Shown here: piece by piece, positions 143 to 9,930 of the stretch
Layout of the letters: each line of letters starts with the position of its first letter
How positions within the stretch are numbered: the first letter of the stretch is position 1
Source: DASVDK01 sp036562265 [NCBI: Thermodesulfobacteriota bacterium]
GTDB taxonomy: Bacteria > DASVDK01
Assembly (NCBI GenBank): GCA_036562265.1
Contig: DATCKS010000223.1
Coordinates: 1-9,930 of the forward strand
Direction of reading: 5' to 3'
DNA: 9,930 nucleotides
Made by a program: the position numbers and the translations under genes
Notes under the pieces: model-generated
Databases searched by the model: none
What the model was told of the DNA's origin: nothing
The model's input: only the letters and a program-made list of their open reading frames with translations

Positions 143-1096
143 ATGATTCATCCCGACGACAACTTCCTGGCCAGGCTGGCGGCGGTGCAACCGTCGCTCT
201 CGCCACGGATGGCGCAACTGGCGGCCTACGTGAGCGAGAACTACGTGAAGGCGGCCTTCATGAGCACGCGGGAACTCGCCGCGGCGGCCGGCGTGAGCCT
301 GGCAACGGTCGTCCGCTTCCCGGTGCTCCTCGGCTACAAGAACTTCGACGCCTTCCGCGAGAGCATCCAGGATCAGCTCAACTTCGACCTGACCGGCGTC
401 GAGCGGCTCAAGACGCTGCCGGCGGCCAACCGGTCCCCCGCGGCCCTCCTCCGGCGGATCATCGACGCCGACTTCGAGAGCCTGCGCGCCCTCGCCCGGT
501 CGTTCTCCGAGACGCAGCTCGAGCGCTTCGTCGAGGCGCTCCGCGCGTCCGAGCGGGTCACGATCGTCGGCTTCCGCTACGTGAGCCCGCTCACGATCTA
601 CTTCGGCTACTCCCTGGCCAAGATCAAGCCGAACGTCGAGGCCTTCACGCGGGCCGACTCGTCCCTCTACGACCGCGTCCGGCTGATGGACAAGGGCGAC
701 ACGCTCGTCGCGATCGCCTTCGCACGCTATCCGAGCGACCTCGTCGCGCTCGTCCGCTACGCGCGCAAGCACGGGGTGCGCGTCCTCGCCATCACCGACA
801 GCCCGCTGTCGCCCATCCTGCCGCTCGCGGAGGTCGCGCTCTTCGCGAGGGCGAGCATGCTCGACTTCGTCGGCTCGCTGGCCGCGCCGGCCGCGCTCAT
901 CAACTGCGTCGTCTCGGAACTCGGCGTCAGGCTCGGCGAGCGCGCCCTCGAGCGGCTGCAGGCGCTCGAGGCGGTGGCGGCCGAGATCGGCACCTACGTG
1001 CGCAGCGGCAGCCGGCCGACGCCGTACCGGGGCAACCTCCTCGCCTGGGCAGACGAGCCCGACGGCGCCGAGCGGGCGCCCGAGCCGACGCCGTGA
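143..1096 (+). CDS. MurR/RpiR family transcriptional regulator (HTH plus SIS domain)
   Basis: This 317-residue protein has the usual two-domain RpiR layout. An N-terminal HTH (about residues 5-80) has the typical spacing of MSTRELAAAAGVSLATVVRF followed by LGYKNFDAFR. A SIS phosphosugar-binding fold (about 120-275) shows VTIVGFRYVSP, GDTLVAIAFARYPSDLV and VRVLAITDSPLSPI. RpiR proteins bind palindromic operators and respond to small ligands, most often phosphosugars, through the SIS domain. I chose the ATG at 143 because the in-frame TTG at 80 is part of the -35 box and the GTG at 113 lies before the predicted transcript start. The ribosome site (AAGAAG at 134-139) is poor. The stop overlaps the GTG start of the ATPase gene (GTGA), so the regulator is probably co-transcribed with the importer it controls. 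The ligand is unknown. An RpiR protein next to a quaternary-amine importer suggests it senses the imported compound or a metabolite of it. Confidence 0.9.
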   Translation: MIHPDDNFLARLAAVQPSLSPRMAQLAAYVSENYVKAAFMSTRELAAAAGVSLATVVRFPVLLGYKNFDAFRESIQDQLNFDLTGVERLKTLPAANRSPAALLRRIIDADFESLRALARSFSETQLERFVEALRASERVTIVGFRYVSPLTIYFGYSLAKIKPNVEAFTRADSSLYDRVRLMDKGDTLVAIAFARYPSDLVALVRYARKHGVRVLAITDSPLSPILPLAEVALFARASMLDFVGSLAAPAALINCVVSELGVRLGERALERLQALEAVAAEIGTYVRSGSRPTPYRGNLLAWADEPDGAERAPEPTP

Positions 1097-2082
1097 TCCG
1101 CCTCGAGCACGTCTCCAAGGTCTTCACCTCGGCCGGCCACACCATCCGGGCGGTCGACGACGTCTCGCTCGAAGTGGCCCCGGGCGAGATCTGCGTCCTG
1201 ATCGGGCCGTCCGGCTCCGGCAAGACGACGACGATGCGGATGATCAACCGGCTCGAGCTGCCGACGTCCGGGTGCATCACGGTCGGCGGGCGGGACATCG
1301 CGTCGGTCGACGACGTCGAGCTGCGGCGCGGGATCGGCTACGTGATCCAGCAGGTCGGGCTCTTCCCGCACATGACCGTGGCCGACAACGTGGCGATCGT
1401 GCCGCGCCTGCTCAAGTGGCCGGCCGCGAGGCGGCGCCGCCGCGCGGAGGAGCTGCTCGAACTGGTCGGCCTCGAGCCCGCGCGGTTCGCCGATCGCTAT
1501 CCGCGGCAGCTCTCGGGGGGGCAACAGCAACGGGTCGGCGTCGCACGGGCGCTCGCGGCCGACCCGCCGATCGTCCTCATGGACGAGCCGTTCGGGGCGG
1601 TCGATCCGGTCACGCGCAAGCAGCTCCAGTGGGAGCTCAAGCGCATCCAGGCCGAGGTGCACAAGACGATCGTCTTCGTCACGCACGACATCGGCGAGGC
1701 GTTCCTCCTCGGCGACCGGATCGTCCTCATGGCCGACGGCCGGGTCGTGCAGCAAGGCGCCCCCCAGGACCTCCTTCGCCATCCCGCGGACCCGTTCGTG
1801 ACGAGCTTCATCGGCGAGAACCGGGCCGCCGGGATGCTCCAGTACACGACCCTCGCGGAGCTGGCCCGGCCGGCGGCCGAGGCCCCGCGGCCCGGCGTGA
1901 CCCCCCTTCCGGCGACGCTCTCGGTGCTCGAGGCGCTCAAGCGACTCGGCAATCGGCCGGACGAGGCCGACGACGCCATCTGGGTGTCCGATCCGGCCGG
2001 CCGGCCGGCGGGCCGCCTCACCTACCGGGACCTCGTCGTCGCGATCGGCGAGGCGATGGCAGACGATGCGGTACCTCGTTGA
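1093..2082 (+). CDS. Glycine betaine/choline/carnitine-type ABC importer, ATP-binding subunit (OpuCA/OsmV-like)
   Basis: This 329-residue ATPase would energise the importer formed with the next two genes. All ABC motifs are intact: Walker A GPSGSGKT (38-45), Q-loop Gln86 in VIQQVGLFPH, signature LSGGQ (140-144), Walker B IVLMDE (160-165) and H-loop His198 in FVTHD. The sequence most resembles the quaternary amine uptake (QAT) group. OpuCA-type subunits normally carry two CBS domains. Here only about 90 residues follow the ATPase core, with one CBS-like half (about 270-320, including AIWVSDPAGRPAGRLTYRDL), so the regulatory tail is shortened. The GTG start at 1093 overlaps the rpiR stop and implies translational coupling. 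The 3' end overlaps the first permease by 17 nt. The substrate is not settled by the ATPase. Confidence 0.92.
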   Translation: MIRLEHVSKVFTSAGHTIRAVDDVSLEVAPGEICVLIGPSGSGKTTTMRMINRLELPTSGCITVGGRDIASVDDVELRRGIGYVIQQVGLFPHMTVADNVAIVPRLLKWPAARRRRRAEELLELVGLEPARFADRYPRQLSGGQQQRVGVARALAADPPIVLMDEPFGAVDPVTRKQLQWELKRIQAEVHKTIVFVTHDIGEAFLLGDRIVLMADGRVVQQGAPQDLLRHPADPFVTSFIGENRAAGMLQYTTLAELARPAAEAPRPGVTPLPATLSVLEALKRLGNRPDEADDAIWVSDPAGRPAGRLTYRDLVVAIGEAMADDAVPR

Positions 2083-2701
2083 GCACCCGCAGCGCGTCCT
2101 CGAACTCGCGCTGCAGCACCTCGAGATCGTCGCCGCCTCCGTCCTGGTCGCCGTCCTCGTCGGCGTGCCGCTCGGGATCCTCGTGACGCGCCTGCGGTGG
2201 CTCGAGGGGCCGGTCATGTACACGGCCGGCATCCTCTACACCGTCCCGAGCCTCGCCCTCTTCGCGGTGCTCATTCCCGTCACGGGCCTCGGCGCGCGGC
2301 CGGCGATCGTCGCGCTGATCCTCTACTCCCTGCTCGCGATCATCCGCAACACCGTCGCCGGGATCGATGCCGTCGACCCCGCGACGCTCGAGGCGGCGCG
2401 GGGCATGGGCATGACCGGCACCCAGCGCCTGCTCCTCGTCGAGCTGCCGCTCGGGCTGCCGATCATCCTGGCCGGCGTGCGCGTCGCGGCCGTGGCGGCC
2501 ATCGGGATCGCGACCGTGGCGGCGTACGTGGGCGCCGGCGGCCTGGGCCTCCTCATCTTCGACGGCCTGCGCACCCTCGACACGGACCGCGTGCTCGGCG
2601 GCGCCCTGGCGACGTCGGCCATGGCCCTCGCCGTCGACGCCGGCCTGGCCCGGCTGGGCGGCAGGCGCGGCGAGGACATCGCGCAGGCGCGCGGCGGCTG
2701 A
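2066..2701 (+). CDS. QAT-type ABC importer permease 1 (OpuCB/OsmW-like)
   Basis: This is a 211-residue inner-membrane permease of the binding-protein-dependent transport family. Several hydrophobic segments are visible: roughly 20-42, 50-72, 79-97, and two towards the C-terminus around 130-165 and 175-195. The conserved TVPSLALFAVLIPVTGLG element of glycine betaine/choline permeases is at 59-76. The cytoplasmic EAA loop begins at EAARGMGMTG (109-118) and would contact the ATPase. The ATG at 2066 lies inside the end of the ATPase gene (17-nt overlap), and the protein begins directly with the MRYLVEHP-type N-terminus usual for this family. It is paralogous to the next gene and the two probably form a heterodimer. 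Confidence 0.9.
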   Translation: MRYLVEHPQRVLELALQHLEIVAASVLVAVLVGVPLGILVTRLRWLEGPVMYTAGILYTVPSLALFAVLIPVTGLGARPAIVALILYSLLAIIRNTVAGIDAVDPATLEAARGMGMTGTQRLLLVELPLGLPIILAGVRVAAVAAIGIATVAAYVGAGGLGLLIFDGLRTLDTDRVLGGALATSAMALAVDAGLARLGGRRGEDIAQARGG

Positions 2702-2712
2702 GGCGGTTCTCG

Positions 2713-3369
2713 ATGGGCAACCCGTTCGGCTTCGTGACCTACATCCTGGAGCACCCCGACAGCTTCCTCGAGCTCTTCCGGCAGCACGTCGAGCTCACGG
2801 CCCTGTCGGTCGTCTTCGCCGTCGCCGCCGCCCTCCCCCTCGCGGTCCTGGCGAGCCGCATCAATGCGCTCGCCGGCCCGATGACGTGGCTCGCCGGCGT
2901 CGGGCAGACGATTCCGAGCCTCGCCGTCCTCGCCCTCGTCCTGCCGTTCCTCGGCATCGGGTTCGCGCCGTCCCTCTTCGCGCTGACGATCCGCGCGCTC
3001 CTGCCGATCTTCCTGAACGCCTACGTCGGCATCCGCGGCGTCGACCGGGCCGCGATCGAGGCGGCGCGCGGGATGGGGATGAACGGCGCCGAGCGGCTCT
3101 TCCTCGTGGAGCTGCCCCTGGCGGTCCCGGTCATCCTGGCCGGCGTCCAGACCGCCACGGTGCAGAACGTCGGGGTCGCCACGCTCGCGGCCTTCATCGG
3201 CGGCGGGGGGCTCGGCGACCTGATCCTCCAGGGGCTCGCCATGGTCGACACGCCGGTGCTCCTCGCCGGCGCCGTGCCGGTTGCGCTGCTCGCGATGCTG
3301 GCCGACGTCGGGATGCGGCGCATCGGCCGCCTGCTCACGCCGGGCGGCCTTCGGGTGGTGCGGGCATGA
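2713..3369 (+). CDS. QAT-type ABC importer permease 2 (OpuCD/OsmY-like)
   Basis: This 218-residue permease is paralogous to the preceding one. It has the same opening (YILEHPDSFLELFRQH), the element TIPSLAVLALVLPFLGIG at 65-82, and an EAA loop at EAARGMGMNG (116-125). The reading frame stays open far upstream, but that part overlaps permease 1 in another frame and has no membrane-protein character. The ATG at 2713 is therefore chosen, preceded by GAGG at 2700-2703 overlapping the upstream stop. The gap to permease 1 is only 11 nt. The stop codon overlaps the ATG of the MmgE/PrpD gene (ATGA), so translation of the enzyme is probably tied to that of the permease. Confidence 0.9.
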   Translation: MGNPFGFVTYILEHPDSFLELFRQHVELTALSVVFAVAAALPLAVLASRINALAGPMTWLAGVGQTIPSLAVLALVLPFLGIGFAPSLFALTIRALLPIFLNAYVGIRGVDRAAIEAARGMGMNGAERLFLVELPLAVPVILAGVQTATVQNVGVATLAAFIGGGGLGDLILQGLAMVDTPVLLAGAVPVALLAMLADVGMRRIGRLLTPGGLRVVRA

Positions 3370-4709
3370 GCGCGGGAGACCGGACGCGCGAGGTCGCCAG
3401 GTTCGCGCTCGGCGTCCGCTTCGCGGACCTGCCGGCGGCCGTGCAGGCGCAGGCGCTTCGCTGCGTGCTCGACCTCCTGGGCTCGGCGGTCGCCGGCAGC
3501 CTCACCCCGGTCGCCCGGATCGCCGCCACCTACGCCCGGGCGGCGCACGGCCCGGGCGGGGCGACCATCATCGGCACCGACGGCGGCAGCACGCCGGTCG
3601 GCGCGGCGCTCGCCAACGGCTTCGCCGCCTCGGCGCTCGACATCGACGACGGTTATCGCCCCGTCAAGGGGCATCCGGGCGCGGTCGTCCTGCCGGCCGT
3701 CCTCGCGGCCGCGGAGCAAACCCGCGCGAGCGGTCAGGAGTTCCTGACGGCGCTCGTCGTCGCCTACGAGGTCGCCATGCGCGCCGGCCTCGTCCTGCAC
3801 CCGCTCTACGGCTTCTACCACGGCACCGGCGCCTGGGGGCCGGTCGGCGCGGCGGCCGGCGCGGCGCGCCTCCTCCGCCTCACGCCCGACCAGACCTGGC
3901 ACGCGCTCGGCATCGCCGAGTTCCACGCGGCGATGACCCCCGAGATGCGGTCGGTCGACTATCCGAGCATGCTCAAGGACGGCATCGGGTGGGGCGCCAT
4001 GGTGGGGCTTGCCTCCGCGGGGCTCGCGGCCGCGGGCTTCACCGGGATCCCGAGCCTCTTCGACGCGGCGCCCGAGGGCGCCGCGCTCCTGGGCGGCCTC
4101 GGCCGCGACTACCTGATCCTGGATCTCTACTTCAAGCCGTACCCCTGCTGCCGCTGGGCGCAGCCGGCGGTCGAAGGGGCGCTCGCGGCCGCGGCCGCGC
4201 TCGGCGCGCGGGGCGACGACATTGCCCGGGTCACGGTGTACACGTTCGAGGCGGCGACCCACCTGCGCGTCGTCGCCCCCCGTACCACCGAGGAGGCGCA
4301 GTTCAGCCTCCCCTGGCCGGTCGCCTGCGCGCTCCTCGGCGGCACCGTCACGCCTGCCGACGTGCTCGACGCCGCCCTCGAGGATGCCGCCCGCCGCCGG
4401 CTCGCGGCCCGCGTGGCGATCGTCGAGGATCCGGACCTCTCCCGGCAGTTCCCGGCCCGCGCCCTCGCCCGCGTCGAGGTCGAGACGGCCGACGGCCGCC
4501 GCGCCGCCTCCGGCGTGGTCGCCGCGCGCGGCGACGCCGACGCCCCGCCTGCCGACGCCGAACTGCGGGAGAAGTTCCATCGCCTCGCCGACCCCGTCCT
4601 CGGGGCGGACGGCGCCCGTTCGCTCGCGGCCGCGATCGAGGACCTGCCCGAGGCCGAGAGCCTGGACCGCCTCCTCGAACGGCTCCGCGTCCCCGCGCCG
4701 GCTTCCTAG
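3366..4709 (+). CDS. MmgE/PrpD family protein, paralogue A (inside the transporter operon)
   Basis: This full-length family member (447 residues) sits between the permease and binding-protein genes. MmgE/PrpD enzymes include 2-methylcitrate dehydratase, cis-aconitate decarboxylase and iminodisuccinate epimerase, so family membership suggests chemistry on a carboxylic acid but does not give the reaction. Visible landmarks are the N-terminal helical start (REVARFALGVRFADLP), Asn84, DIDDG at 92-96, His103 in KGHPGAVVLPA, His152 in FYHGTGAWGPVG, Lys204 in MLKDGIGWG and FKPYPCC at 256-262. After the CC pair the usual HIHPAID-type segment reads WAQPAVE, so the expected active-site His is Gln266. 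The residues after Lys204 also depart from the common KxxHxG pattern. These changes suggest a distinct subgroup or altered substrate. The start ATG overlaps the permease stop (ATGA). It is probably cytoplasmic, acting on the imported compound or a derivative. Confidence 0.88.
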   Translation: MSAGDRTREVARFALGVRFADLPAAVQAQALRCVLDLLGSAVAGSLTPVARIAATYARAAHGPGGATIIGTDGGSTPVGAALANGFAASALDIDDGYRPVKGHPGAVVLPAVLAAAEQTRASGQEFLTALVVAYEVAMRAGLVLHPLYGFYHGTGAWGPVGAAAGAARLLRLTPDQTWHALGIAEFHAAMTPEMRSVDYPSMLKDGIGWGAMVGLASAGLAAAGFTGIPSLFDAAPEGAALLGGLGRDYLILDLYFKPYPCCRWAQPAVEGALAAAAALGARGDDIARVTVYTFEAATHLRVVAPRTTEEAQFSLPWPVACALLGGTVTPADVLDAALEDAARRRLAARVAIVEDPDLSRQFPARALARVEVETADGRRAASGVVAARGDADAPPADAELREKFHRLADPVLGADGARSLAAAIEDLPEAESLDRLLERLRVPAPAS

Positions 4710-4730: not shown

Positions 4731-4736
4731 AGGAGG
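4731..4736 (+). promoter_or_regulatory. Strong Shine-Dalgarno AGGAGG for the binding-protein gene
   Basis: A perfect AGGAGG ends 8 nt before the ATG at 4745 and 5 nt before an in-frame GTG at 4742. The 8-nt spacing favours the ATG. It is the best ribosome site in the + strand cluster. That fits the usual need for more periplasmic binding protein than permease. The 35-nt gap before this gene contains no other obvious signal. Confidence 0.7.
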
Positions 4737-4744
4737 TTGCCGTG

Positions 4745-5647
4745 ATGAACCATCGGACGCTTCTCGCCTCGCTCGTGGCTGCGCTCCTCGTGGCCGCCGC
4801 GTTCGTTGCGCCGACCGCCCGCGCCGGTCAGGCCGGCAAGACGGTCACGGTCGGCTCCAAGAACTTCACCGAGCAGCTCATCGTGGGGCAGATCGTCGCC
4901 GCGCTGCTCGAGCACGCGGGCTACCAGGTCGATCGCAAGCTGAACCTCGGCGGCACCGCGGTGGTGCACCAGGCGCTCGTCAGCGGCGACGTCGACGTGT
5001 ACGTCGAGTACACGGGGACCGGCCTCACGGCGCTCCTCAAGCTTCCCGCGCAGACCGACCCCGACAAGGTGTACGAGACGGTCAAGCGGGAGTACGAGAG
5101 CCGCTTCAAGGCCACCTGGCTGTCGCCCTGGGGCTTCAACAACACCTACGCGCTCGCGATGCGCGCGGACAGGGCTCAGGCGCTCGGCGTGAAGACGATC
5201 GCCGACCTCGAGGGCAAGGCGCAGGACCTCACGTTCGGCGGGACGCAGGAGTTCATCACGCGGCCGGACGGCCTGCCCGGCATCGAGAAGACGTACGGCC
5301 TCAAGTTCAAGCAGGCGCGCGGGATGGACTTCGGCATCATGTATCAGGCGGTGGCCTCCGGCCAGGTCGACGTCGCCTCCGCCTTCGCCACCGACGGCCG
5401 CATCGCCGCGCTCAACCTCGTGACGCTCGAGGACAACAAGCGGTTCTTCCCGCCCTACTACGCCGCTCCGGTCGTCCGGCAGGAGGTCCTCCAGAGGGAC
5501 CCGAAGATCGCCGAGGTCCTCAACACGCTCGCCGGCAAGATCGACGACGACACGATGCGCAGGCTGAACGCGCAGGTCGATCAGGAGAAGAAGGAGCCGG
5601 CGGACGTGGCCCGCGCCTTCCTCAAGGAGCGGGGCTACATCAACTGA
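4745..5647 (+). CDS. QAT-type ABC importer periplasmic solute-binding protein (OpuCC/OsmX/ProX-like)
   Basis: This 300-residue protein would capture the substrate in the periplasm and deliver it to the permease pair. It begins with a Sec signal peptide (about residues 1-27, basic MNHR then a Leu/Ala/Val core, predicted cleavage after PTARA). There is no lipobox cysteine, so it is soluble rather than lipid-anchored. Family landmarks are GSKNFTEQ at 37-44, DVYVEYTGTG near 84-93, WGFNNTYALAM at 129-139, EFITRPDGLPGIEKTYG at 169-185 and TDGRI at 216-220. These place it in the OpuAC/ProX-type glycine betaine/choline/carnitine group, in which some members bind other betaines such as ergothioneine. 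The exact ligand cannot be read by eye. It is the last gene of the + cluster, separated from the other transporter subunits by an MmgE/PrpD gene. Confidence 0.92.
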   Translation: MNHRTLLASLVAALLVAAAFVAPTARAGQAGKTVTVGSKNFTEQLIVGQIVAALLEHAGYQVDRKLNLGGTAVVHQALVSGDVDVYVEYTGTGLTALLKLPAQTDPDKVYETVKREYESRFKATWLSPWGFNNTYALAMRADRAQALGVKTIADLEGKAQDLTFGGTQEFITRPDGLPGIEKTYGLKFKQARGMDFGIMYQAVASGQVDVASAFATDGRIAALNLVTLEDNKRFFPPYYAAPVVRQEVLQRDPKIAEVLNTLAGKIDDDTMRRLNAQVDQEKKEPADVARAFLKERGYIN

Positions 5648-5687: not shown

Positions 5688-6290
5688 TCAGCGCACGGCC
5701 AGGACGACCGATCCGGCGAGGAGCGCGCCCATCGCGATGTCGAAGGCGCGGCGGGCGCGCTCGGTGCCGAGGACCCGTTGCGCGGCGGCGCCGAAGGCGA
5801 GCCACACGAAGCAGCAGGGCGAGGACGCCACGACGAACAGGCCGCCCAGGGCCAACGCCTGCGCGAGGGCGCTGCCGGACGCGGCGTCGAGGTAGGTCCC
5901 GGCCGCGCCGGCGCAGACGATCCACGACTTCGGGTTGACCCACTGGAACGCCGCCGCGCCGACGAAGCCGACCGGCCTCTTCCCGTGTTCCGCCGCCGCG
6001 CCGCCGCGACCCGCGGTCGCGATCCGGTAGGCGAGCCACAGCAGGAAGGCGGCGCCGATCCAGTTGAGCGCCCGCAACAGGCCGGGACTGGCCAGGACGA
6101 CGCTGCCCAGCCCGAACGCCACGACCGCCATCATCAGCCCCATCCCGATCGTCACCCCGAAGAGGCACGGGAGTCCGCGCAGGACGCCCACCCGGGCGCC
6201 GGTCGCCGTCAGGAGGAGGTTGCTCGGCCCCGGCGTGCCGGCGGCAACGACCGCGAAGAGCAGGAAGGCGGCCGCCTGCTCCGGCGTCAT
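5688..6290 (-). CDS. LysE/RhtB family amino-acid exporter
   Basis: This 200-residue inner-membrane protein of the LysE/RhtB (RhtB/ThrE-like efflux) family exports amino acids or related small molecules. It has the N-terminal signature GTPGPSNLLLTATGARVG (18-35), followed by hydrophobic segments at about 39-65 and 70-90. The conserved FQWVNPKSW lies near the middle, and there are two further hydrophobic stretches in the C-terminal half. Length and layout match the family. The start ATG at 6290 gives the usual MTPEQAAAFLLFAVVAAGTPGP N-terminus. No good Shine-Dalgarno precedes it. The 99-nt gap to the SDR gene (6291-6389) holds no clear promoter, only an ACGATCGT palindrome at 6356-6363. It may be transcribed with the SDR and MmgE/PrpD genes upstream. 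The exported substrate is unknown. Confidence 0.9.
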   Translation of the reverse strand: MTPEQAAAFLLFAVVAAGTPGPSNLLLTATGARVGVLRGLPCLFGVTIGMGLMMAVVAFGLGSVVLASPGLLRALNWIGAAFLLWLAYRIATAGRGGAAAEHGKRPVGFVGAAAFQWVNPKSWIVCAGAAGTYLDAASGSALAQALALGGLFVVASSPCCFVWLAFGAAAQRVLGTERARRAFDIAMGALLAGSVVLAVR

Positions 6291-6389: not shown

Positions 6390-7148
6390 CTAGAACGCGA
6401 AGCGCCGCATCCCGCCGTCCACGTGGATCACCTCGCCCGTGATGTAGCGCCCCCTGGGCGAGGCCAGGAAGGCGACGAGGTACGCGACGTCGTGGGGCTC
6501 GCCGAAGTAGCCGAGCGGGATGTTGGCCTTCGCGAACGCCTCCCGATCCTCGGGCGTCGGGTGGAGGCGCTCGACGATCTGCTCGCTCATGATCCGGCCG
6601 GGCGGGATGGAGTTGACGGTGATGCCGTAGGGGCCGACCTCCCGTGAGAGCCCCTTGGCCCAGGCGTGCACCGCCGCCTTGGCGGCGTTGGCCGCGTTCA
6701 TCCCCCGCGGTTCGGACGAGCCGGTGATGTTGATGATCCGGCCCCATCGGCGCTGCCGCATGGAGGGAAGCAGCGCGTGCGTGAGCCGCCGCAACGCCAC
6801 GAAGTTGACGGCGAAGGCCTCCGTCCACTGCTCCTCGGTGGCGTCGACCGGCAGCGGGCGCGAGCCGCCGGCGCTGTTCACGAGGATGTCGGCGCGCCCG
6901 AACGCACCGAGGACGCGGTCGCGGACGAGCGTGTGGGCGTCCGGCGTACCGAGGTCCACCGGGACGACGAGCGGGCGGGGCGCTCCCGAGGCGGCGATCT
7001 CGTCCGCGAGTCGCTCGAGGCGCTCCGCGCGCCGCGCCACGACGGCAAGCTGAACCCCCTCGGCCGCGAGCACCTCGGCGACCGCGCGCCCGATGCCCGC
7101 GCTTGCCCCGGTCACGACCGCCACCCGGTCACGCAACTCCAGGTCCAC
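6390..7148 (-). CDS. SDR-family oxidoreductase-like protein lacking the catalytic tyrosine
   Basis: The 252-residue protein has a classical short-chain dehydrogenase fold. TGASAGIG (13-20) is the dinucleotide-binding motif, NSAG (91-94) replaces the usual NNAG, Asn115 lies in AFAVNFVAL, serines 144-145 lie in NITGSSEP, and Lys157 is retained. The catalytic YxxxK is not intact: the position four residues before Lys157 is Ala153 (segment NAANAAKAAVHAW). Some SDR subgroups annotated as 3-oxoacyl-ACP reductase-like also lack this Tyr, so the reaction may be non-standard or lost. I chose the GTG at 7148 because it has AGGAGG 8 nt upstream and gives the usual short N-terminus (DLELRDRVAVVTG). The longer ATG at 7217 would add 23 unrelated residues that overlap the preceding gene. 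It starts 1 nt after the stop of paralogue B and is probably co-translated with it. Confidence 0.88.
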   Translation of the reverse strand: MDLELRDRVAVVTGASAGIGRAVAEVLAAEGVQLAVVARRAERLERLADEIAASGAPRPLVVPVDLGTPDAHTLVRDRVLGAFGRADILVNSAGGSRPLPVDATEEQWTEAFAVNFVALRRLTHALLPSMRQRRWGRIINITGSSEPRGMNAANAAKAAVHAWAKGLSREVGPYGITVNSIPPGRIMSEQIVERLHPTPEDREAFAKANIPLGYFGEPHDVAYLVAFLASPRGRYITGEVIHVDGGMRRFAF

Positions 7149-7149
7149 G

Positions 7150-8595
7150 TCACCGTCCTCCTGCCGCGGCCCCACCCGCGGCCTCGTGCCATGGTCGATC
7201 GACCCCGTCCCGCCCAAGGCCCCCGAGCAGCTCGGCGATCGCGCCGGCTGGCAGCGTGTCGACGCGCTCGAGCGTCTCGAGCGTGCGCGACGCCTCGGCC
7301 GGCCCGAGGAGGAGGCCGAGGCACCCGCGAGCCTTGTCCGCGAGGAGGCGCCTCTCGATCGGCCTGCCCCAGATGCCGGGCGGCCCGTCGCACCGGCGCT
7401 CGAGCGACCGGCCGTCGTCGAGGGTGACCTGGATCCGCACGTGCATCCGGTCGAAGCGGCCCTCGATGGCCGGGTCCTGGACGAGCTCCGTGCGGGCGAG
7501 GAGCCGCTCCATGTCGGGAGCGAAGCGGCGGGCGTCGGTGAAGCTCTCGATCCCCACCCGCCCGTCGAGCAGCGCGACGGCGGCCGCGTACTGGAAGCTG
7601 AACTTCCCCGCCAGGCCGGTGGCCGGCCGCGGCCGATCGACGTACGGCATGACGGGGGTGGTGATGCGCACCCGCTCGATGCGGGCGCCTGGCGGCAGCG
7701 CGGGGTGCAGGTCGAGCGCGGCGGCGATGGCGAAGTGTGTGCCGTACTGGCTCGGGAACACCTTGAAGGCGGGCCCCGGGTCGACGACGTGCAGCGTCTC
7801 GACCGGGGCGACGAGGCGCGACGGGTCGAAGGCCTCGCCGAAGAACGCGTAGCCGAAGCCGCGGCGGCCGGCCAGGGCGTCGGGGTCGGCGGTGAACCCG
7901 CGGCCGGCGAGGAGGGCGGCGTCGAGCCCAGAGGCCGCGGCGTCGCCGCAGTGGAGCCCCTTGGTCATGCTGCCGACGTTGACCAGCACCGCGCCGGCCC
8001 GCGACGCGGCGATCCCGAGGGCGTGCGCGAGCTCGTCGGCGCCAAGCCCGAGGAGCACGGCGCTTGCCGCCGCGGCGCCGAGGGGACCGACCACGCCCGG
8101 CGGATGGAAGGTGAGCTGTGCGGGCTCGTACTGGCCCGACGCGAGCCGCAGCCGCGCCTGCGCCTCGATGCCGACCGCCAGCGCGAGGAGGAGCCGCTCG
8201 CCGCCGGGGGCCGGTCGCGCCGCCGGCCCCGGCACCTCGACGCCGCGCGACAGCGCCTCGCCGAGGGCGAGGATCGCCGGTAGCGTGGTCGAGACGGCGT
8301 GGTTGGGCGGGTTCCACATCGGCTCCCAGTCGAGGACGTGCATCGCCGCCCCGTTCGTCCGGGCGGCGGCGACCGGGTCGGTGCGGAAGCCGTGACCGAT
8401 GACGGTGGCGACCGGCGCGCCGCCGGCGGCGGCCGCCTGCGCCGCGAGCAGGCGCGGCCCCTTCTCGAGGCTGCCGGCCGCGGCGATGGCGACGCCGTCG
8501 ACCACGAGATCGCGGCACGTCGCCCGCTCGGCGTCCGTCAGGCCGCGGTCGGCGATGGTGAGGAGCAGCCGGGCGAACTCGGCCGTCAGGCTCAT
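7150..8595 (-). CDS. MmgE/PrpD family protein, paralogue B
   Basis: This 481-residue member of the MmgE/PrpD family is slightly longer than its neighbours, with extra residues around 117-133 and a Gly/Ala-rich C-terminal end. Family landmarks are Asn81 (RTNGAAMHVLDW), Asp89, His99 in NPPNHAVSTTLPA, His164 in LTFHPPGVVGPLG, Lys212 and His215 in SMTKGLHCGDAA, and His287 in FPSQYGTHFAI. The set of candidate active-site residues is therefore retained. The DDxH segment is unusual (DWEPMWNPPNH), and the CC pair found in the other two copies is replaced by SQ. The reaction is not assignable. Family precedents are 2-methylcitrate dehydration, cis-aconitate decarboxylation and iminodisuccinate epimerisation. 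The start ATG at 8595 overlaps the stop of paralogue C (ATGA), and the SDR follows after 1 nt, so B, C and the SDR look like one translational unit. Confidence 0.88.
   Translation of the reverse strand: MSLTAEFARLLLTIADRGLTDAERATCRDLVVDGVAIAAAGSLEKGPRLLAAQAAAAGGAPVATVIGHGFRTDPVAAARTNGAAMHVLDWEPMWNPPNHAVSTTLPAILALGEALSRGVEVPGPAARPAPGGERLLLALAVGIEAQARLRLASGQYEPAQLTFHPPGVVGPLGAAAASAVLLGLGADELAHALGIAASRAGAVLVNVGSMTKGLHCGDAAASGLDAALLAGRGFTADPDALAGRRGFGYAFFGEAFDPSRLVAPVETLHVVDPGPAFKVFPSQYGTHFAIAAALDLHPALPPGARIERVRITTPVMPYVDRPRPATGLAGKFSFQYAAAVALLDGRVGIESFTDARRFAPDMERLLARTELVQDPAIEGRFDRMHVRIQVTLDDGRSLERRCDGPPGIWGRPIERRLLADKARGCLGLLLGPAEASRTLETLERVDTLPAGAIAELLGGLGRDGVDRPWHEAAGGAAAGGR
7157..7162 (-). 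promoter_or_regulatory. Shine-Dalgarno AGGAGG deciding the SDR GTG start
   Basis: On the - strand AGGAGG lies within the last codons of the upstream MmgE/PrpD gene, 8 nt before the GTG at 7148. This supports the shorter GTG-initiated SDR over the ATG at 7217 and indicates coupled translation. Confidence 0.65.
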
Positions 8596-9930
8596 GCCGC
8601 CGGCCGCTCGAGGAACCCGAGGAGATCGCCGGCGGACCACCGGTCGAGGTCGCCGACGGCGGCCTCGACGCGCTCCGCTCCCGCCTCGCCGAGGATCGGC
8701 GCGGCGAGCGCCCGGAACTTCGCGCGCAGGGCGGCGTCGCGCCCCGGGTTGGCCGGCGACCCGGAGGGGTCGAGCACGTCGACGCGACGGAACCGGCCGG
8801 GCGCCTCCTCGACCTCGACCCAGCCGGCGAAGCGGCCGGGATAGATCGCGTCGAGCGCCGGGTCGTGGACCACCTCGATCGACTCGGCCAGGGCGGTGAC
8901 GGTCCGGTCGGCGATGCGGTCGGCCGCGAACTGCCGCGGCAGGACCGCGCCGTCGGTGAGCGCCACGGCCACGCAGTAGCGGAGGCTCATCTGGGCGTTG
9001 AGGGCGGTGCCGGGACGGTAGGGGTAGCCGCACTGGACGTCCACGACGCGGGCGACGCCGGCGCGGACGCGCGCCCCGGGGCGGTAGCTCGCCCGGAGGG
9101 CGAGTGCGGCGTCGATGTGGGGGTGCACGCTGCCGCAGCACGAGTACGGCTTGAAGGTCGTCTCGGCGGCGTGCCAGGTCGCGCCGAGACCACCGACGAG
9201 CGGTCCCGGATCCGAGTGGTCGGAGAAGGCCTTGAGGAGCCCGCCGTCGGCCGCCTCGTACACGCTGGTCGGCCCGGTGAAGCCCATCGCGGCCAGCTCC
9301 GCCGCGAGGACGCCCGACTGGGCGGAGCGTCCGGGATGGAACCGCTTGCTCATCGACCCGTCGGCGTTGAAGGCGAAGAGGCCGGCGGACTGGGTGCCGG
9401 CGAGGCCGAGCGCCCACGCGGTCCGCTCCGCGTCGAAGCCGAGGAGGACGGCGGTCGCCGCCGCCGCGCCGAACGTGCCGCAGACGCCGGTCAGGTGCCA
9501 GCCGCGCAGGCGGGCGTGCGACGGCTCGAGGGCGAGCGCCGTGCGGATCATGACCTCGTAGCCGGCGACGATGGCCGTCTCGAGCCGCTCCCCTGCGCCG
9601 CCGTACGCCTCCGCCGTGGCGAGCGCCGCCGGGACGACGACCGCCCCGGGGTGGAGCTTGGCGTTGTGGAAGTCGTCCAGTTCGAAGGCGTGCGCCGCGA
9701 CGCCGTTCACCAGCGCGGCGTCGCTCGGCCGCAGGTCGGCGCGGCCGCTCCCCCATCGGCGGGCGAGCGGCCCCCTGCCCGGCGCCCAGCGCGACACCCA
9801 GTCGGCGACGATCCCGGTCCACGGCTGGTCCATGCCGACGAGACCGACGCCGAGCGTGTCGAGGACGAAGAGGCGGACGGCGCGGCGGACCGGCTCCGGG
9901 ATGTCCTCGTGCCCGAGCCCCGCCAGCCAG
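8592..9930 (-). CDS. MmgE/PrpD family protein, paralogue C (5' end beyond the window)
   Basis: The frame is open to the right edge of the window. An internal ATG at 9833 is not the true start, because the 32 codons before it encode a typical family N-terminus (LAGLGHEDIPEPVRRAVRLF, then VLDTLGVGLVG). About 445 codons are visible, and only some ten residues are probably missing. Landmarks are NGVAAHAFELDDFHNAKLHP with its Asp pair and His, the His in RGWHLTGVCGTFG, SMSKRFHPGRSAQSG with Lys and His, and FKPYSCCGSVHPHID with the CC pair and His. These are the conserved features of active MmgE/PrpD enzymes, so this is the most canonical of the three copies. It overlaps paralogue B by ATGA. Its promoter lies outside the window. 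The substrate is unknown. Confidence 0.9.
   Translation of the reverse strand, partial: WLAGLGHEDIPEPVRRAVRLFVLDTLGVGLVGMDQPWTGIVADWVSRWAPGRGPLARRWGSGRADLRPSDAALVNGVAAHAFELDDFHNAKLHPGAVVVPAALATAEAYGGAGERLETAIVAGYEVMIRTALALEPSHARLRGWHLTGVCGTFGAAAATAVLLGFDAERTAWALGLAGTQSAGLFAFNADGSMSKRFHPGRSAQSGVLAAELAAMGFTGPTSVYEAADGGLLKAFSDHSDPGPLVGGLGATWHAAETTFKPYSCCGSVHPHIDAALALRASYRPGARVRAGVARVVDVQCGYPYRPGTALNAQMSLRYCVAVALTDGAVLPRQFAADRIADRTVTALAESIEVVHDPALDAIYPGRFAGWVEVEEAPGRFRRVDVLDPSGSPANPGRDAALRAKFRALAAPILGEAGAERVEAAVGDLDRWSAGDLLGFLERPAA

What the first reader, a model, noticed from the sequence alone, without database searches (positions are those of the whole stretch)
3366..4709. MmgE/PrpD enzyme gene inserted inside a QAT-type ABC importer operon
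The usual order of OpuC/Osm operons keeps ATPase, permease, binding protein and permease together. Here an MmgE/PrpD gene lies between the second permease and the binding protein and is joined to the permease by an ATGA overlap. Such tight coupling suggests the enzyme acts on the imported substrate, and that the importer serves catabolism rather than osmoprotection. I infer an undescribed uptake-plus-catabolism module for a betaine-like or carboxylated zwitterion.
Basis: partly seen in the sequence, partly recalled or inferred. Interest (0 to 1): 0.6.

Follow-up and report, generated by a model that had tools for sequence, protein, structure and literature searches.

The report
Betaine uptake operon with built-in enzyme
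A bacterial gene set that imports betaine-like compounds carries, in the middle, an enzyme of a family not linked before to such compounds; relatives in bacteria and salt-loving archaea suggest they use it to eat an unidentified betaine rather than to resist salt.

Summary
At 3366-4709 (+) a complete MmgE/PrpD gene lies between the second permease and the binding protein of a QAT-type (OpuC/ProX-like) importer, joined to the permease by an ATGA overlap, in an apparent six-gene operon headed by an RpiR regulator. The order permease-permease-MmgE/PrpD recurs in two Chloroflexota genomes, once with the same overlap. Relatives of the enzyme lie near a QAT importer in haloarchaea, Gamma-, Alpha- and Betaproteobacteria and Syntrophales. 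In one unselected scan, 5 of the 8 closest loci had QAT genes nearby, against 0 of 71 other MmgE/PrpD loci; among 56 wider loci only 4 had a clear importer. Neighbours in relatives include betaine-demethylase-like genes (GbcA/GbcB, sarcosine oxidase, MTTB) and a nitrilase (11 of 14 QAT-linked loci). The binding protein keeps the residues that hold a quaternary ammonium and a carboxylate. Best reading: a catabolic module for a carboxylated quaternary amine, the enzyme moving an alpha-proton of it or of an early product. Substrate and reaction remain unknown. New variant of a known kind.

The parts
143..1096 (+). MurR/RpiR-type regulator (HTH_6 + SIS), first gene of the operon; ends 4 bases inside the ATPase gene
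   Evidence: Pfam SIS 54.3 bits, HTH_6 32.9 bits; coordinates; homologue at the same place in L002, 67% identity; no match in L147
1093..2082 (+). QAT-type ABC ATPase (ProV/OpuCA-like), without a clear tandem CBS region
   Evidence: ABC_tran; TIGR01186 proV 326.2 bits, cut-off 326.6; one CBS trace of 15.8 bits, below the 24-bit cut-off
2066..2701 (+). permease 1 (BPD_transp_1)
   Evidence: Pfam 79.7 bits
2713..3369 (+). permease 2 (BPD_transp_1)
   Evidence: Pfam 64.9 bits
3366..3369 (+). ATGA overlap of the permease 2 stop and the MmgE/PrpD start
   Evidence: sequence; same overlap in L147
3366..4709 (+). MmgE/PrpD-family enzyme, 447 aa; predicted fold closest to iminodisuccinate epimerase
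   Evidence: Pfam PF03972 184.1 and PF19305 129.3 bits; AlphaFold2 pLDDT 93.2; 2hp3 Z 46.5, rmsd 2.4 over 427
4731..4736 (+). AGGAGG, ribosome-binding site of the binding-protein gene (inferred)
   Evidence: sequence
4745..5647 (+). OpuAC-type binding protein with the quaternary-ammonium cage and carboxylate-site residues K39, Y89, T90, N133, Y135, E169, R173, D175, F214, Y238
   Evidence: Pfam OpuAC 258 bits; residues; model Z 31-36 to ProX/OpuCC/EgtUC-type chains

Best explanation
The six genes form a catabolic operon. The importer takes up a carboxylated quaternary ammonium compound (a betaine). The MmgE/PrpD enzyme, made in step with permease 2 by translational coupling, then works on that compound or an early breakdown product: its catalytic histidine (H103) removes a proton next to a carboxylate, the enolate being held by K257, giving an epimerised or eliminated product that downstream enzymes (in relatives: nitrilase, Rieske or corrinoid demethylases, FAD oxidases) can use. 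Shown: gene order, its recurrence, neighbours, conserved residues. Inferred: operon transcription, betaine ligand, catabolic role, enolate chemistry. Not known: the substrate, and whether the reaction is epimerisation, dehydration or another elimination.
For: Same order in L002 (RpiR-ATPase-permease-permease-MmgE-SBP, 60-67% identity) and L147 (ATPase-permease-permease-MmgE; ATGA overlap, and a secreted-protein-like start just behind the enzyme before the contig ends). In the single unselected scan, QAT genes lie near 5 of the 8 closest loci against 0 of 71 other MmgE/PrpD loci, p = 2.5e-06. On the tree the QAT label needs 8 changes, at least 6 forced by well supported branches, so the link recurs. 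Clustering of 1094 neighbouring ORFs at 73 loci, without preset markers, puts QAT-like ATPase, permease, nitrilase and MTTB first after the enzyme. Nitrilase at 11 of 14 QAT-linked loci. Paracoccus and Ancylobacter loci join importer, enzyme, Rieske oxygenase, reductase and FAD oxidoreductases; the Paracoccus ones resemble GbcA, GbcB and sarcosine oxidase. Binding-site residues are identical in the 13 of 14 binding proteins that reach them, K39 in 13 of 14. H103 and D92 in 72 of 72 and K257 in 71 of 72 aligned rows (window plus 71 loci).
Against: In the wider sample of 56 genome regions, 6 show a QAT-type SBP or permease match; 4 of these (L147, L150, L154, L155) are clear importers and 2 (L177, L198) are weak lone permease matches. 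MTTB is commoner there (12 of 56), and many regions show none of the markers. The closest relative, L001 (67%), has no importer on its short contig but GTP cyclohydrolase I, nitrilase and an FAD/Fe-S oxidase. Clostridia-type relatives, which the tree nests beside the window's group (support 87), have no QAT match. No demethylase, nitrilase or other marker of betaine breakdown lies in the window itself. The residues of the betaine site are shared by osmoprotectant binding proteins and so do not prove catabolism. The IDS-epimerase residue H85 is replaced (S89), and the epimerases' catalytic Tyr could not be matched with certainty, so the reaction may differ.
Confidence: 0.62

Rival explanations
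1. The importer is an osmoprotectant system and the MmgE/PrpD gene is a chance passenger using the operon's promoter.
For: Residues and fold of the binding protein are those of osmoprotectant systems too; MmgE/PrpD genes are common and two more lie in the same window; most of the 56 wider loci show no importer.
Against: Same order at 60-73% protein identity in two other genomes, recurrence on at least 6 supported branches, contrast to 0 of 71 other loci, and only a trace of one CBS domain in the window ATPase - though Paracoccus and Marinobacter ATPases do carry two.
Confidence: 0.13
2. The enzyme belongs to the pathway but acts late, on a C4-dicarboxylate intermediate made after demethylation or amide cleavage, as methylsuccinate isomerase does in itaconate clusters; the imported compound never meets it.
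For: All known MmgE/PrpD substrates share a 1,4-dicarboxylate (PMC12290011, Discussion and distribution sections); most carboxylate-site residues are kept; Paracoccus and Caballeronia loci add an acyl-CoA ligase and dehydrogenase.
Against: The H85 position of IDS epimerase is D, N, S or Q in 72 of 72 clade rows and H in 31 of 47 others, arguing for a different substrate; the enzyme is the one catabolic gene inside the window's transporter operon.
Confidence: 0.2
3. The importer carries no quaternary amine but another cation or zwitterion (for example an amino-dicarboxylate), the link to demethylases being incidental.
For: Binding proteins of this class can be made to hold varied amines: engineered relatives in the PDB are named as nicotine, acetylcholine, serotonin and cytisine sensors.
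Against: Conservation of cage and carboxylate residues plus two unrelated demethylase types next to relatives of the enzyme.
Confidence: 0.05

Closest known systems
Iminodisuccinate (IDS) epimerase, Agrobacterium (PDB 2hp0, 2hp3)
   Same: Best solved relative by sequence (1.2e-31) and by fold (Z 46.5; cis-aconitate decarboxylases follow at 44-45); D88, H99, H150, K198 and K266 align to D92, H103, H152, K204 and K257
   Different: 27% identity; H85 is S89 here; no QAT importer is known to me for it (recalled)
(S)-(R)-methylsuccinate isomerase of itaconate clusters (PMC12290011)
   Same: MmgE/PrpD enzyme in a catabolic cluster, alpha-proton chemistry proposed for the whole family (Discussion read)
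   Different: Paper says it always lies beside a methylsuccinyl-CoA dehydrogenase; the window has no acyl-CoA dehydrogenase
OpuC/ProX/EgtU type quaternary-amine importers (F-III binding proteins)
   Same: Gene set, binding-protein fold and binding residues
   Different: Enzyme gene inside the operon; ATPase with at most a trace of one CBS domain
Hydroxyproline-betaine and proline-betaine catabolic clusters (cited in PMC4113996, passages seen)
   Same: Betaine breakdown that includes an alpha-carbon epimerisation; same logic proposed here
   Different: Those epimerases are of the proline racemase type or enolase type (recalled), not MmgE/PrpD
Glycine betaine monooxygenase GbcAB and MttB-superfamily demethylation systems
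   Same: GbcA/GbcB-like genes (Paracoccus, Ancylobacter) and MTTB genes (15 of 72 loci) stand near relatives of the enzyme
   Different: None of them is in the window

Membership tests
MmgE/PrpD superfamily | both Pfam domains above cut-off | tested here: met
   184.1 and 129.3 bits against 32.1
MmgE/PrpD superfamily | whole-chain fold of solved members | tested here: met
   11 solved MmgE/PrpD entries at Z 33-46, 423-432 residues aligned
2-methylcitrate dehydratase PrpD (NCBIfam equivalogs) | score above curated cut-off | tested here: not met
   54.0/950, 41.4/575, 31.6/458 bits
IDS epimerase | residues H85, D88, H99, H150, K198, K266 (list from PMC12290011) | tested here: not met
   H85 is S89; the other five align to identical residues in the window protein
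IDS epimerase | catalytic Tyr145 | tested here: inconclusive
   HMMER puts P146 there, the spacing in methylsuccinate isomerase suggests Y148; Y148 is kept in 5 of 72 clade rows, Y151 in 71 of 72
methylsuccinate isomerase | gene next to methylsuccinyl-CoA dehydrogenase | tested here: not met
   no acyl-CoA dehydrogenase in the window
cis-aconitate decarboxylase | decarboxylase activity | not testable with these tools
   fold similar (Z 44-45); activity needs an assay
QAT importer with F-III binding protein | aromatic cage, Asn base, Arg and Lys for the carboxylate | tested here: met
   N133, Y135, F214, Y238, R173, E169, D175 match the motif spacing of EgtUC N339, Y341, Y419, Y443, R379, E375, D381 (no residue-by-residue alignment to EgtUC was printed); Y89 (F293 in EgtUC) and K39 are placed by motif and memory of AfProX
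osmoprotectant OsmF equivalog (NF049931) | score above curated cut-off | tested here: not met
   186.4 against 400 bits
osmoregulated ProV/OpuCA ATPase | tandem CBS domains (recalled as defining) | tested here: not met
   one region at 15.8 bits, cut-off 24; L010 and L082 have two
ProV subfamily TIGR01186 | score above curated cut-off | tested here: not met
   326.2 against 326.6 bits, a miss by 0.4

The most novel reading that the evidence does not exclude
The clade is a new functional family of MmgE/PrpD enzymes that act on quaternary betaines (an epimerase or lyase for a betaine, probably one with a succinate-like part), the core of an uptake-plus-catabolism module (importer, nitrilase, MmgE/PrpD, with exchangeable demethylases) that has passed between bacteria and haloarchaea, at times on plasmids.
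Probability: 0.35. Interest if true: 0.72.

Novelty: new variant of a known kind. Interest (0 to 1): 0.5.

Why it matters
Most MmgE/PrpD homologues have no known reaction (PMC12290011, section read, speaks of mostly uncharacterized proteins). A clade tied to a betaine importer and demethylases gives a testable substrate class, adds a possible new step to the breakdown of quaternary amines in soils, sediments and brines, and warns against annotating such importers as osmoprotection systems.

Tried and rejected
Own genome: not held, so the taxon of the window and the genes beyond its ends are unknown. PrpD, OsmF and ProV assignments miss their curated cut-offs. Search of the window with nitrilase, MTTB, Rieske oxygenase, amidohydrolase, FAD/Fe-S and GlxA markers: none. 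Rfam (gathering threshold) and tRNA scans of the window: nothing. The promoter and terminator scan gave one promoter-like site (minus strand, 126-99; shuffles 0.0 on average) and one terminator-like site (minus strand; shuffles 1.5 on average), neither serving the operon. Literature: searches gave 0 papers; (MmgE with betaine) gave 5 papers, none on this by title and start of abstract; searches matched 403, 109 and 177 papers, of which I saw 25, 12 and 10 rows, none on this by title and start of abstract, and none of the 25 rows holds the word MmgE. Lost osmosensing as an argument for catabolism: kept only as weak. A charge-swap idea for the active site (D89/H94 in 56 of 72 rows, H/D in 28 of 47 others) does not apply to the window, which has S89/D94. 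PMC2861598 (passages) gave no residue list that I could use.

Weak spots: the pooled association test (72 loci against 47) mixes seeds, 8 plasmid loci that I chose from the 40 listed of 199 matching records, and near-identical genomes, with 867 kb of flank against 467 kb; I therefore rest on the single unselected scan, whose loci are also partly related. That scan's 71 others include Clostridia-type relatives; nine such rows nest on the clade's side of the tree and one of them, L007, passes the profile limit (423 bits), so the clade's edge is not sharp. One profile match, G1562 (371.7 bits), was not fetched as a region and not counted. My ORF caller is crude: it missed the enzyme of L201, and rows L176_o and L014_c look misread (long branches; the single Q at position 89 is L176_o). 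L079 gave no MmgE match in the marker search. Placements around residues 146-152 and 204 are uncertain in the large alignment.

Full report
What is there. The window has ten protein genes with Pfam matches. Six on the plus strand form a tight unit: RpiR/SIS regulator 143-1096, ATPase 1093-2082, permease 1 2066-2701, permease 2 2713-3369, MmgE/PrpD 3366-4709, binding protein 4745-5647. Neighbouring genes overlap by 4 bases (regulator/ATPase), 17 bases (ATPase/permease 1) and 4 bases (permease 2/enzyme, ATGA), or are 11 and 35 bases apart. On the minus strand, converging, lie a LysE-type exporter, an SDR and two more MmgE/PrpD genes.

The enzyme. Both MmgE/PrpD domains score far above cut-off. 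No curated equivalog fits: the best is 54.0 bits against 950. Closest solved sequences are IDS epimerase (1.2e-31) and cis-aconitate decarboxylases. The AlphaFold2 model (pLDDT 93.2, 33 sequences) aligns to IDS epimerase with Z 46.5, rmsd 2.4 over 427 residues, and to cis-aconitate decarboxylases with Z 44-45 (Foldseek, agrees).

A clade of its own. Eight (L001-L006, L008, L010) are closest (39-66% identity). A 15-row profile gives their enzymes 604-674 bits; other MmgE/PrpD proteins of these and four further genomes score 305 bits or less, except the Clostridia-type L007 at 423. At E of at most 1e-110 there are matches in 3 of 301 genomes of the L002 phylum, 5 of 274 of the L010 class, 4 of 116 of the L005 family, 1 of 39 of the L001 class, 1 of 13 of the L002 order, 17 of 385 of the class of G583 (the L069 genome), 1 of 300 of the order of G586 (the L058 genome), 23 of 61 of the order of L003, 2 of 100 of the order of L004 and 2 of 29 of the class of L147's genome (seed genomes included, groups overlapping). 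The enzyme is thus patchy and crosses domains. Among plasmids, 199 records match at a loose limit (1e-5), 60 of them over at least 80% of the protein.

Gene order elsewhere. L002 (Chloroflexi MAG) has RpiR, ATPase, permease, permease, MmgE/PrpD and the start of the binding protein in the same order at 60-67% identity. L147 (a genome of the same phylum) has ATPase, permease, permease, MmgE/PrpD at 62-73% identity, the same ATGA overlap, and an open frame with a signal-peptide-like start right behind the enzyme before the contig ends; no regulator match. The closest relative, L001 (Rubrobacter MAG, 67%), has a GTP cyclohydrolase I end, a nitrilase, the enzyme and an FAD/Fe-S oxidase on a 4.9-kb contig and no importer. 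On the tree the four form one group with SH-aLRT 100.

Other neighbourhoods. Importer and enzyme are close, in other arrangements, in Haloarcula L005, Natronococcus L006, Natrinema L084, Halobaculum L085, two more genomes of the Haloarcula family (L154, L155), Marinobacter L010, a genome of its class (L150), Paracoccus L082, Ancylobacter L083, Caballeronia L081 and Syntrophales L004. With L002 and L147 that makes 14 QAT-linked loci; a nitrilase is near in 11 of them, the exceptions being L002, L004 and L147. The Paracoccus locus also has an acyl-CoA dehydrogenase, a CoA ligase, a GlxA-type regulator, a GbcA-like Rieske oxygenase (528.5 bits, cut-off 670; nearest solved chains 3vca and 4qup), a GbcB-like reductase (237/500) and sarcosine-oxidase-like proteins. 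MTTB genes stand near 15 of 72 loci; the one of L004 is closest to a glycine betaine methyltransferase structure, 9yce, tied with 2qne. These scores fall short of the curated cut-offs, so the names are resemblances. Three of the eight plasmid loci fetched have no importer nearby (L080, L086, L087).

Is it chance? Within the single scan, QAT genes lie near 5 of 8 closest loci and 0 of 71 others, p = 2.5e-06; nitrilase 4 of 8 and 0 of 71, p = 4.7e-05; MTTB 2 of 8 and 1 of 71, p = 0.026. The 71 include Clostridia-type relatives, nine rows of which the tree places on the clade's side; related loci are not independent, so the p-values are optimistic. In the 56 regions drawn by profile search, 6 have a QAT-type SBP or permease match, of which 4 are clear importers, 8 a nitrilase and 12 MTTB. 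A pooled test on 72 loci against 47 controls gave 13 against 0 for the binding protein and 15 against 0 for permeases, with the faults named under Tried and rejected. Clustering of 1094 called ORFs at 73 loci, without preset markers, ranks a QAT-like ATPase group (19 loci, some probably of other ABC types), permease (16), nitrilase (16) and MTTB (13) first after the enzyme. On the tree the QAT label needs 8 changes, at least 6 forced by well supported branches: the link recurs and is not one inherited cluster.

The importer's ligand. The binding protein model falls among ProX, OpuCC, OpuBC and EgtUC chains (Z 31-36), well above other betaine-binding types (Z 17-20). The EgtU paper (PMC9732360, abstract and passages) names the cage F293, Y341, Y419, Y443, base N339, and R379 with E375 and D381 at the carboxylate; the spacing matches Y135, F214, Y238, N133, R173, E169 and D175 here. 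These, with Y89 and T90, are identical in the 13 of 14 aligned proteins that reach them (L002 is cut off), and K39 in 13 of 14. So a carboxylated quaternary amine is the likely ligand; osmoprotectant systems share these residues, so this does not tell food from osmolyte. The window ATPase has only a trace of one CBS domain (15.8 bits) and L002 none listed, weakly against osmotic control, while Paracoccus and Marinobacter ATPases have two.

How it may work. PMC12290011 (Discussion and distribution sections read) proposes that all MmgE/PrpD enzymes use one histidine to move a proton at C2 of a 1,4-dicarboxylate, with lysine holding the enolate. The window protein keeps that histidine (H103, 72 of 72 aligned rows), D92 (72 of 72) and K257 (71 of 72). 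The residue equal to IDS H85, a carboxylate ligand, is D in 56, N in 11, S in 4 and Q in 1 of 72 rows (S89 in the window), but H in 31 of 47 other rows. Typical of the clade are also K101 (67 of 72; 2 of 47 others), Y151 (71 of 72), W157 (70 of 72) and W264 (71 of 72; 7 of 47 others, 8 of 9 Clostridia-type). I read this as the same proton chemistry on a differently shaped or charged substrate. An epimerase for a chiral betaine would parallel hydroxyproline-betaine use, where PMC4113996 (passages) says that breakdown of the resulting hydroxyproline can start with epimerisation. Elimination or dehydration is nearly as possible; I give epimerisation about 0.4 and elimination or dehydration about 0.35.

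Verdict. The substrate and the reaction are not established. Importer operons that carry a catabolic gene are a known kind (carnitine and choline clusters, recalled); an MmgE/PrpD enzyme in one did not turn up in my searches of the held library (listings only). Hence new variant of a known kind, interest 0.5.

Noticed in passing
7150-8595 and 8592-9929 (-): Two further MmgE/PrpD genes, overlapping by 4 bases, followed 1 base later by an SDR (6390-7148) and then a LysE-type exporter (5688-6290); both enzymes are outside the finding's clade (32% and 38% identity).
   Followed up: partly
L009, L012, L016, L026 (upstream of MmgE/PrpD): In gut Clostridia a related MmgE/PrpD gene follows directly on, or lies near, a gene that I read as alanine-dehydrogenase-like (my reading, no family scan).
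   Followed up: no
alignment of 72 rows, residues 89 and 94 of P0001: Reciprocal swap: D89 with H94 in 56 of 72 clade rows, H with D in 28 of 47 other MmgE/PrpD rows; suggests a paired change in the active site.
   Followed up: partly
L010:594-1874 and L150: Near the importer, nitrilase and MmgE/PrpD of Marinobacter lies an M24 protein with likeness to DMSP lyase DddP (321.3 bits, cut-off 600); a homologue (79%) is near the enzyme in L150.
   Followed up: no
L165, L180, L183, L184: These loci combine MTTB, nitrilase, GlxA-type regulators and an FAD oxidoreductase; the one of L165 scores weakly as sarcosine oxidase beta (71.2 bits, cut-off 529.45).
   Followed up: partly
L156, L157, L158 (genome G602): One genome of the Haloarcula family has three diverged copies of the enzyme, none with a QAT match in the stretches fetched.
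   Followed up: no
L001:2-328: A GTP cyclohydrolase I end lies just upstream of the nitrilase and MmgE/PrpD genes in the closest relative; its meaning is unclear.
   Followed up: no
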